A stretch of DNA of 5,437 nt from Rhodospirillales bacterium (GTDB lineage Bacteria; Pseudomonadota; Alphaproteobacteria; Rhodospirillales; Casp-alpha2), in NCBI GenBank assembly GCA_021775275.1, contig JAJFIE010000463.1:1-5437 (forward strand). The letters are read 5' to 3'. Both the position numbers and the translations under genes were made by a program. A model generated the notes under the pieces. The model searched no databases, was not told where the DNA came from, and saw only the letters and a program-made list of their open reading frames with translations. Positions 1 through 1,129 of the stretch are shown piece after piece. How positions within the stretch are numbered: position 1 is the first letter of the stretch; each line of letters begins with the position of its first letter.

Positions 1-384
1 GGCGTGTCCGTGGGGGCCTACCGCATCGTCAGTGGCACACCGCTGCCCTATTACATCATGGCGGGATACGTTGTGGTCATTGCCCAGACCCTGCGCGCGT
101 CGCGCTCCATTATTCCCCTGGCCTACGATTCAGGTGGCGTCACCACGTCAACGGTAACCGTACCTGTGGTTGCGGCGCTGGGCCTGGGTCTCGCCTCCAC
201 TATTCCCGGACGTAGCCCGTTGATCGATGGGTTCGGACTGATCGCCTTCGCCAGCGTGTTTCCGATTATCTCGGTCCTGGGGTACGCCGCCATTGCCGAC
301 AAACTGCACCAACGCGGCAGTCAAAAGCCGGGGAAAGATCCGGACGAAATTCAACAAACAACTGACGAAGGAAATGTGTCATGA
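1..384 (+). CDS. DUF1538 family multi-pass membrane protein, 3' end only
   Basis: The 5' end lies outside the window. The 127 visible residues are the C-terminal part of an integral inner-membrane protein and are read in frame from base 1. About three hydrophobic segments are visible (roughly residues 14-30, 49-66 and 76-98). They are followed by a short polar, charged tail that should be cytosolic. The signature AYDSGGVTTSTVTVP (residues 41-55), followed by a Gly/Leu-rich helix and PLIDGFGLIAFAS, is what I recognise as typical of DUF1538. The family's function is not established; its conserved Gly/Ser/Thr-rich membrane motif is compatible with a transporter, but that is inference. The stop overlaps the next start as ATGA, so the P-II-like gene downstream is probably translationally coupled. 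That coupling supports a physical or regulatory partnership. Confidence 0.85.
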   Translation, partial: GVSVGAYRIVSGTPLPYYIMAGYVVVIAQTLRASRSIIPLAYDSGGVTTSTVTVPVVAALGLGLASTIPGRSPLIDGFGLIAFASVFPIISVLGYAAIADKLHQRGSQKPGKDPDEIQQTTDEGNVS

Positions 385-731
385 ACCTGAAATTGATTGT
401 GGCGCTGGTTGCCGATAATAAAACAGACGATATCGTGGCCGCGGCCCGTGAGGCCGGCGCCACCGGCGCCACCGTGATTACCAGTGTGCGGGGCGAGGGC
501 CTGAAGCCGGAAAAAACCTTTCTCGGGCTGGAATTGAGTGCACAACGGGACTTTCTTCTGTTTATTGTCGCGGCGACCCGCGCCAGGGAAATTCTGGAGA
601 CAATCGCCACGGCCGGAAAGTTTGAAGAAGAACCGGGGTCCGGCGTCGCATTCCAGATCGAAATTGAGGACGCCATTGGCCTCAAATCACAGGAAGACGT
701 TATCATACAGGAAATCGAGGAAGCGATATGA
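381..731 (+). CDS. P-II-like (GlnB-fold) regulatory protein
   Basis: This 116-residue cytosolic protein has the length and layout of P-II signalling proteins, which form trimers, bind adenine nucleotides in the clefts between subunits and control membrane transporters or enzymes. Family-like features are the opening strand LKLIVALV, the helix KTDDIVAAAREAGATGATV (14-32) and the glycine-containing RGEG turn (37-40). A second beta-alpha unit (57-79) precedes AGKFEEEPGSGVAFQIEIEDAIGL (78-101), which sits where classical P-II has its B-loop and last core strand. The T-loop is short and diverged (about 38-50): there is no tyrosine in it, so GlnD-type uridylylation is unlikely. AAGGA at 368-372 lies 8 bases before the ATG. 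The start overlaps the DUF1538 stop and the stop overlaps the CBS gene start, both as ATGA. The most likely partner is the DUF1538 protein (inference); a role in nitrogen control is not shown. Confidence 0.8.
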   Translation: MNLKLIVALVADNKTDDIVAAAREAGATGATVITSVRGEGLKPEKTFLGLELSAQRDFLLFIVAATRAREILETIATAGKFEEEPGSGVAFQIEIEDAIGLKSQEDVIIQEIEEAI

Positions 732-1129
732 GCGAGAAAGAGTATATCAGCGTCAGCGAGGTCATGAGCCGCGACATCTATACCATCGCCGGCAAGGCGA
801 CGGTCACGGACGCTATCAAGATCATGCGCGAACACCACGTCAGCTCGCTGGTGGTGGAACGGCAGGGTGAGCATGATGAGTTCGGCCTGTTGGAAGTTTT
901 TGATGTGGCCAAGGAAGTCATGGCCGAGAACCGGTCCGCGGACCGCATGAACGTCTACGAAATCATGCAGAAACCGGTAATGAGCATCGCGGCGGATATG
1001 AATATTCGCTACGCTGTCCGCCTGTTGGTCCGATTTCGCCTGACCCGGGCGCTGGTGATCGACGAGAAGCGCGCGCCGGTCGGTCTGGTCACCATTCGGG
1101 ACATGGTCCTGGAACACATGGATGGTTAG
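728..1129 (+). CDS. stand-alone tandem CBS-domain protein
   Basis: This 133-residue soluble protein consists almost entirely of two CBS motifs, a Bateman module. The first spans about residues 8-62 (VSEVMSRDIYTI, then ATVTDAIKIMREHHVSSLVV, then GLLEVFDV). The second spans about 75-131 (VYEIMQKPVMSI, then IRYAVRLLVRFRLTRALVID, then PVGLVTIRDMV). Such modules usually bind AMP, ATP, S-adenosylmethionine or NAD-type ligands between the two motifs and relay the cell's energy state to a partner. No catalytic domain or DNA-binding domain is fused. GAGGA at 717-721 is 6 bases upstream of the ATG, which overlaps the P-II-like stop as ATGA. Placement after DUF1538 and P-II-like genes suggests a second sensor input to the same membrane protein. 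The ligand cannot be read from the sequence. Confidence 0.9.
   Translation: MSEKEYISVSEVMSRDIYTIAGKATVTDAIKIMREHHVSSLVVERQGEHDEFGLLEVFDVAKEVMAENRSADRMNVYEIMQKPVMSIAADMNIRYAVRLLVRFRLTRALVIDEKRAPVGLVTIRDMVLEHMDG

What the first reader, a model, noticed from the sequence alone, without database searches (positions are those of the whole stretch)
1..1129. DUF1538 membrane protein coupled to two small sensors: P-II-like plus tandem CBS
Seen directly: three genes joined by two successive ATGA overlaps, encoding a membrane protein of unknown function, a GlnB-fold protein and a stand-alone Bateman module. Known: P-II proteins gate transporters (GlnK-AmtB, SbtB-SbtA), and CBS pairs sense adenine nucleotides. 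Inference: the DUF1538 protein is a transporter or channel whose activity is set by two independent nucleotide-sensing subunits, an energy-gated membrane module that I do not know to be functionally described.
Basis: partly seen in the sequence, partly recalled or inferred. Interest (0 to 1): 0.75.

Follow-up and report, generated by a model that had tools for sequence, protein, structure and literature searches.

The report
PII-gated sodium/proton antiporter operon
Across many proteobacteria the same four genes stand side by side: two membrane proteins predicted to work as a sodium(potassium)/proton antiporter, followed by a PII-like and a tandem-CBS protein that likely switch it, which would tie salt and pH balance to a metabolic signal.

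Summary
Window 1-384 is the C-terminal half of a DUF1538 protein, followed through two ATGA overlaps by a PII-like gene and a tandem-CBS gene. The contig starts inside the first gene. Two points change the reading. DUF1538 is not uncharacterised: the pair UmpA/UmpB of Halomonas is a published Na+(Li+,K+)/H+ antiporter, and this fragment fits UmpB better than UmpA. And the linkage is far stronger than one genome shows. Of 180 DUF1538 loci, collected by DUF1538 alone, 176 hold this PII type and 160 CBS. CBS was never seen without PII (0 of 155 scored). In 200 relatives this PII type is in 83 genomes, all among the 95 with DUF1538. Distant DUF1538 proteins, of Clostridia too, have PII-like neighbours as well, some with two PII-like units in place of CBS. 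The PII lacks the canonical ATP and 2-oxoglutarate signature, so 'nucleotide sensing' is open. Most likely the PII-like protein binds and gates the antiporter, as GlnK gates AmtB and SbtB gates SbtA, with CBS as an add-on input; contact and ligands are untested. No paper joining DUF1538 or UmpAB with PII or CBS was found in the searched library.

The parts
1..384 (+). C-terminal half (127 aa) of a DUF1538 protein, UmpB-like subunit of a predicted Na+(Li+,K+)/H+ antiporter; gene start lies off the contig
   Evidence: PF07556 107.6 bits over profile 115-210/211; NCBIfam UmpB 160.7 bits versus UmpA 122.3; contig starts here; in 57 of 60 relatives' loci two adjacent DUF1538 frames, in the other three one fused frame
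381..384 (+). ATGA overlap: stop of the DUF1538 gene and start of the PII-like gene
   Evidence: read from the sequence; same overlap in 43 of 59 relatives' junctions
381..731 (+). PII-like protein, 116 aa, non-canonical: five-residue gap at the end of the T-loop against the genome's own GlnB/GlnK-type PII; GSGV in place of GDGK, no RVRTG
   Evidence: PF00543 44.2 bits; AlphaFold2 pLDDT 81 and PII chains as best Foldseek matches; alignments A2, A3; counts in 180 distinct relatives
728..731 (+). ATGA overlap: stop of the PII-like gene and start of the CBS gene
   Evidence: read from the sequence; same overlap in 50 of 57 relatives' junctions
728..1129 (+). stand-alone tandem-CBS (Bateman) protein, 133 aa
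   Evidence: PF00571 71 bits, two stretches; best solved relative CBS-CP12, 5nmu, E 1.7e-20

Best explanation
The window holds the end of a conserved operon, umpA-umpB-PII-CBS, in which a UmpAB-type (DUF1538) membrane pair, predicted to exchange Na+(Li+,K+) for H+, is likely gated by direct binding of a non-canonical PII-like protein, with a tandem-CBS protein that would add a second input. Shown here: gene order, overlaps, co-occurrence across genomes, the PII fold (predicted model), the loss of the canonical PII ligand signature, and that CBS was found only with PII. The umpA gene itself is off the contig and is taken from relatives. From the literature: UmpAB of Halomonas is a heterodimer that exchanges cations for protons in E. 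coli vesicles without its PII or CBS neighbours, so these are not needed for transport itself. Inferred: that the antiporter here does the same; that the PII-like trimer sits on the cytoplasmic face of UmpAB and slows or locks it through its loop, as GlnK does with AmtB and SbtB with SbtA; that ligand binding at the cleft between PII subunits (ligand unknown, an adenine nucleotide the first guess) releases or tightens that lock; and that the CBS dimer acts on the PII-UmpAB complex and not on UmpAB alone.
For: Linkage, loci collected by DUF1538 only: PII in 59 of 60 loci of the same order, 37 of 40 of the wider phylum, 80 of 80 named loci; CBS in 57 of 60, 24 of 40, 79 of 80; 175 of the 180 loci are distinct. 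Phyletic match: PII type in 83 of 200 relatives, all among the 95 with DUF1538, 0 of 105 without (Fisher p 1e-43, not corrected for kinship). Flanking genes are not conserved (largest recurring cluster in 33 of 175 loci given, on both sides and strands), so the linkage is specific to these genes. Dependence: CBS without PII 0 of 155, PII without CBS 14 of 169; at least 6 changes of CBS and 2 of PII on the UmpB tree (FastTree). Distant DUF1538 (Clostridia, Methylocystis, Chelativorans plasmids) also have PII next downstream, 7 of 7 records viewed of 9 found. Antiport: PMC5484666 (abstract, discussion and passages). PII as transporter plug: PMC8352866 (passages).
Against: No contact, complex or ligand was tested. 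UmpAB works in E. coli without these partners, so they could also act elsewhere. Three DUF1538 pairs of 40 in the phylum set have neither gene (L144, L145, L147), and 13 of 40 have PII without CBS. In L142 one of two DUF1538 operons has its PII upstream of the pair and no CBS behind it. The window's own fragment and a full-length relative score below NCBI's equivalog cut-off for UmpB (160.7 and 345.1 against 500), so cation and direction are inferred. The canonical nucleotide site of PII is not kept. Residues of PII that differ between loci with and without CBS rest on 3 supported independent pairs and prove nothing. PII proteins are also used for soluble targets.
Confidence: 0.57

Rival explanations
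1. The PII-like and CBS proteins report on the antiporter's substrate or on energy state but act on soluble targets (enzymes or a regulator), and are only co-expressed with UmpAB.
For: UmpAB is active in E. coli without them (PMC5484666). PII proteins bind soluble targets such as NAGK and PipX (PMC6908673 passages).
Against: Co-occurrence with DUF1538 across genomes and as far as Clostridia with no other conserved neighbour points to DUF1538 itself as the partner.
Confidence: 0.17
2. The DUF1538 pair is PII-gated but its natural substrate is not Na+/H+ (for instance K+, ammonium or bicarbonate); Na+ tolerance in the E. coli screen is a side activity.
For: UmpAB also moved K+ and Li+ (PMC5484666); the best-known PII-gated transporters carry ammonium and bicarbonate; NCBI's equivalog cut-off is not met here; the UmpB model has no significant Foldseek match to a solved structure, so fold gives no help.
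Against: Direct antiport assays with several cations (PMC5484666); DUF1538 is in the table of key pH-adaptation features of a 2026 machine-learning study (PMC13255231, one passage); some saltwater cable bacteria carry UmpAB homologues (PMC10030654, PMC12093952 passages).
Confidence: 0.18
3. PII and CBS are structural or assembly subunits that stabilise the UmpA-UmpB heterodimer and sense nothing.
For: Near-constant presence of PII in UmpAB loci and lack of the canonical ligand residues.
Against: UmpAB assembles and works without them in E. coli (PMC5484666); the glycines at the B-loop (G86 in 175, G88 in 178) and in the T-loop (G38, G40, G49 in 180) of 180 distinct sequences are kept, as if a ligand or a moving loop were selected.
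Confidence: 0.06
4. The PII protein is an ordinary GlnB/GlnK that carries the cell's nitrogen signal (2-oxoglutarate, uridylylation) to the membrane.
For: PF00543 over its cut-off; plasmid records call its relatives 'P-II family nitrogen regulator'.
Against: Best NCBIfam PII model 14.1 bits against a cut-off of 202; the genome has a separate canonical PII, 120 bits; GDGK, RVRTG and the T-loop segment with the tyrosine are not kept; lysine at the GDGK place in 0 of 180 distinct rows.
Confidence: 0.02

Closest known systems
UmpAB, two-component Na+(Li+,K+)/H+ antiporter (Halomonas zhaodongensis, DUF1538)
   Same: Two DUF1538 units side by side in relatives; the window's fragment fits the UmpB model better than UmpA; invariant acidic residues such as E117 and D193 in 39 UmpB relatives (numbering of L164).
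   Different: The published 4.2-kb clone held umpAB, a truncated citrate transporter gene and a permease gene; the paper's main text has no hit for P-II, nitrogen regulatory or CBS. Scores here lie below NCBI's equivalog cut-off.
GlnK-AmtB and SbtB-SbtA (PII-gated transporters)
   Same: A small PII-fold protein encoded next to a membrane transporter; SbtB is also a non-canonical PII-like protein, and SbtB chains are among the structural matches (ranks 41 and 42).
   Different: Different membrane family (no sequence hit in the PDB); a heterodimeric antiporter and not a trimeric channel or symporter, so threefold plugging cannot simply be copied; no cysteine loop as in SbtB; an extra CBS protein.
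Stand-alone tandem-CBS regulators (CBS-CP12, Ta0289, CbpB/DarB)
   Same: Two CBS domains fill the protein; best solved relatives are CBS-CP12 and Ta0289.
   Different: No extra domain; CbpB cut-off not met (22.4 against 125); partner of PII and DUF1538.
CBS-gated transporters (MgtE, OpuA, MpfA)
   Same: CBS domains used as nucleotide or ion input to a transporter (review passages, PMC10710835).
   Different: There the CBS domains are part of the transporter's own chains; here they are a separate small protein together with a PII.

Membership tests
DUF1538 (PF07556) | profile match over the curated cut-off | tested here: met
   107.6 bits against 22.6, C-terminal half only because the contig starts inside the gene
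UmpAB antiporter | NCBIfam equivalog cut-off for UmpB (NF041628, 500 bits) | tested here: inconclusive
   160.7 bits over 108 of 252 positions for the fragment; a full-length relative, L164, has 345.1 and also misses the cut-off
UmpAB antiporter | two adjacent homologous DUF1538 genes | tested here: inconclusive
   upstream gene is off the contig and not found elsewhere in the 74%-complete assembly; 57 of 60 relatives' loci show two adjacent DUF1538 frames, three a fused one
UmpAB antiporter | Na+(Li+,K+)/H+ antiport by the heterodimer | not testable with these tools
   known to me for Halomonas only (PMC5484666)
PII superfamily | PF00543 over cut-off and ferredoxin-like PII fold | tested here: met
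   44.2 bits against 25; AlphaFold2 model pLDDT 81, best matches PII chains, E 2.8e-6
Canonical GlnB/GlnK | equivalog cut-off; GDGK B-loop, RxRTG, full T-loop | tested here: not met
   14.1 bits against 202; GSGV, GLKSQ and a five-residue gap next to the genome's own canonical PII; no lysine at that place in 180 distinct rows, two of them gapped there
SbtB | neighbour SbtA; C-terminal cysteine loop (in some SbtB) | tested here: not met
   neighbour is DUF1538; the 116-aa protein has no cysteine
Tandem-CBS (Bateman) protein | two CBS domains | tested here: met
   PF00571 71 bits, two stretches
Tandem-CBS (Bateman) protein | adenine-nucleotide binding | not testable with these tools
   motif recalled from memory (G-h-h-T/S-x-x-D): in 178 distinct rows the second CBS has T/S in 137 and D in 108 (25 rows gapped), the first has D in 166 but T in only 25
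PII-gated transporter | physical PII-transporter complex that alters transport | not testable with these tools
   only genetic linkage shown

The most novel reading that the evidence does not exclude
DUF1538 antiporters are as a family PII-locked from Proteobacteria to Clostridia: a dedicated PII subfamily with a rebuilt ligand cleft and a loop of fixed length clamps the antiporter, and a second sensor (a CBS dimer in most UmpAB loci, a second PII-like unit in the 600-residue and clostridial types) docks on the PII, perhaps on its R69/E73/D97 face, making a two-key lock on cation/proton exchange.
Probability: 0.3. Interest if true: 0.82.

Novelty: new variant of a known kind. Interest (0 to 1): 0.62.

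Why it matters
PII proteins are known to gate ammonium, nitrate and bicarbonate transport. If they also gate a cation/proton antiporter, one of the most widespread metabolic sensor families reaches into pH and salt balance. The system is common (Vibrio, Shewanella, Colwellia, Methylophaga, Rhodospirillales, Aliiroseovarius and others among the 80 named loci). Antiporter, readout (everted vesicles) and host strain exist already, so the claim can be tested at once. It also gives a function to a PII subfamily that databases still label 'nitrogen regulator'.

Tried and rejected

Literature: searches. All five papers that hold 'DUF1538' and three more that hold 'UmpAB' were searched in the main text for P-II, PII, nitrogen regulatory and CBS (PMC5484666 without the plain word PII; the other seven): no mention; the one 'PII' in PMC7221264 is a peptide motif. 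Only openly licensed PMC papers are held, so 'not in print' is limited to that.

Corrected on checking: fused DUF1538 proteins are not all of the two-PII kind (six of 19 have one PII and a CBS); counts of PII and CBS residues held duplicate rows from short loci and were redone on distinct rows.

The PII and CBS profiles were built from the relatives' set, and the two profiles for the more distant PII from 6 and 4 seeds that include some of the loci counted, so those match by construction. Other phyla were reached mainly through 9 plasmid records, 7 of them viewed, and two or three of the 80 named loci.

Full report
What is there. The window is one whole contig of a 74%-complete assembly. Its left end lies inside a gene whose last 127 residues match DUF1538 (107.6 bits). 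The NCBIfam model for UmpB scores 160.7 bits and that for UmpA 122.3. Two ATGA overlaps (381-384, 728-731) join it to a PII-like gene and a tandem-CBS gene. Behind it come a HugZ/PPOX-like gene whose first ATG overlaps the CBS stop, PEP carboxykinase, and on the other strand a K+ channel, DUF423 and a peptidase C26 fragment.

DUF1538 is described. Meng et al. 2017 (PMC5484666; abstract, passages and discussion read) cloned umpAB from Halomonas zhaodongensis by rescue of an E. coli strain without its three main Na+/H+ antiporters. Both genes were needed for full salt and alkali tolerance, UmpB co-precipitated with UmpA, and vesicles showed Na+, Li+ and K+/H+ antiport, best at pH 9. Their 4.2-kb clone held four ORFs, none of them PII or CBS, and the main text has no hit for P-II, nitrogen regulatory or CBS. 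So the antiporter works without the two soluble proteins. A full-length relative of the window's protein misses NCBI's strict cut-off (345.1 against 500), so the cation is an inference here.

Loci were collected by DUF1538 alone. Relatives: 95 of 200 genomes have DUF1538. In 60 fetched loci, PII is found in 59 and CBS in 57; the one without PII (L035) ends at the contig end, where the start of a PII gene is seen (G156:C112:5834-5956). Phylum: 126 of 398 genomes. In 40 loci chosen to spread over families, 37 have PII and 24 CBS; L144, L145 and L147 have neither, also by three PII profiles. Named genomes: 80 loci, 80 with PII, 79 with CBS, the missing one (L216) at a contig end. Five of the 180 loci are duplicates. 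Genes outside the four are not conserved.

Co-occurrence. A profile of this PII type hits 83 of the 200 relatives at E 1e-12, all of them among the 95 with DUF1538 (Fisher p 1e-43, without correction for kinship). Of the 12 DUF1538 genomes without a hit, six hold a fused DUF1538 protein with two more distant PII-like genes (L254-L259), four end at or near a contig edge (G031, G064, G180, G190), and two hold remnants (L260, L261).

Beyond the window's type. The same genome has a 613-aa two-domain DUF1538 protein on C316, followed by two PII-like genes and no CBS (PF00543 29.7 and 19.3 bits, the second below its cut-off). Clostridial plasmid records hold a DUF1538 protein of about 500 aa and a PII of about 220 aa that is a tandem of two PII-like units, the first weak in L246. 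Methylocystis and Chelativorans hold two DUF1538 genes (the first short in Chelativorans) and one PII. PII was next downstream in 7 of 7 plasmid records viewed, of 9 found. Of 19 fused DUF1538 proteins viewed, 13 have two PII-like units and no CBS (L092, L093, L254-L259; L244-L246, L249, L250 of Clostridia) and six, of about 500 aa, have one PII and a CBS (L090, L127, L137, L138, L142, L143). So PII is the usual partner of DUF1538, and the second sensor varies: CBS, a second PII-like unit, or none.

Dependence. Of 172 loci scored, 169 have PII and 155 CBS; CBS without PII 0, PII without CBS 14, neither 3. On the UmpB tree CBS changes at least six times and PII twice. CBS thus looks like an accessory to a PII-bearing system.

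The PII-like protein. Its predicted structure (pLDDT 81, residues 31-50 at 54 to 64) matches PII chains, SbtB further down the list. Next to the canonical PII of the same genome (C259, 120 bits) it lacks GDGK (GSGV), RVRTG (GLKSQ) and, in that alignment, the five residues LPKVK. [quoted passage not shown] that it falls in this gap, and the roles of K90, R101 and R103, are recalled. In 180 distinct relatives (60 bits or more, so without the fused two-PII type) the span from G38 to D57 is always 20 residues, G38, G40 and G49 are invariant, G86, G88, G100 and Q104 are kept in 175, 178, 178 and 176, and the K90 place is I, V, L or M, or gapped in two. A cleft and a loop under selection, with other chemistry, suggest another ligand or another way of binding the nucleotide.

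The CBS protein. Its best solved relative is CBS-CP12. By the recalled nucleotide motif, the second CBS domain keeps T/S in 137 and D in 108 of 178 distinct rows; the first keeps D (166) but seldom T (25). One working site per chain is plausible but untested.

Mechanism. The most economical reading is a PII-gated antiporter: the PII-like trimer binds the cytoplasmic face of UmpAB and holds it back until its ligand state changes, with CBS adding a second signal. GlnK plugs AmtB, and SbtB partly blocks the exit of SbtA through the T-loop (PMC8352866 passages; PMC10710835 passages). A PII trimer on a heterodimer needs a geometry other than threefold plugging, which is the weak point of the analogy.

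Novelty. Known: UmpAB; PII-gated transporters; CBS-gated transporters. Not found in print in the library searched (main texts searched): any link of DUF1538 or UmpAB with PII or CBS. I file it as a new variant of a known kind.

Noticed in passing
L093 (G000:C316) 466-3051, minus strand: Second DUF1538 locus of the same genome: a 613-aa two-domain fusion followed by two PII-like genes and no CBS.
   Followed up: yes
window 1122-1907 (+): HugZ/PPOX-like gene (CREG beta-barrel plus DUF2470); its first ATG overlaps the CBS stop by 8 bases. A same-strand downstream family that by eye looks alike occurs in 11 of 175 loci (family not tested).
   Followed up: partly
L144, L145, L147: DUF1538 pairs with neither PII nor CBS beside them, in two families of the phylum set; natural partnerless versions, useful as controls.
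   Followed up: partly
L172 4756-5860: UmpAB locus (Wenzhouxiangella MAG) with two PII genes in a row before CBS.
   Followed up: no
L142 1596-5787, minus strand: Two DUF1538 operons back to back: a fused one with PII and CBS, then a PII that stands upstream of a two-gene pair.
   Followed up: partly
L260 and L261: Decayed DUF1538 loci in two relatives; in L261 remnants of DUF1538 and CBS lie together, as if the operon was lost as a unit.
   Followed up: no
window 3683-4711 (-): Ion-channel gene (Ion_trans, K+ channel-like) near but not part of the antiporter operon.
   Followed up: no
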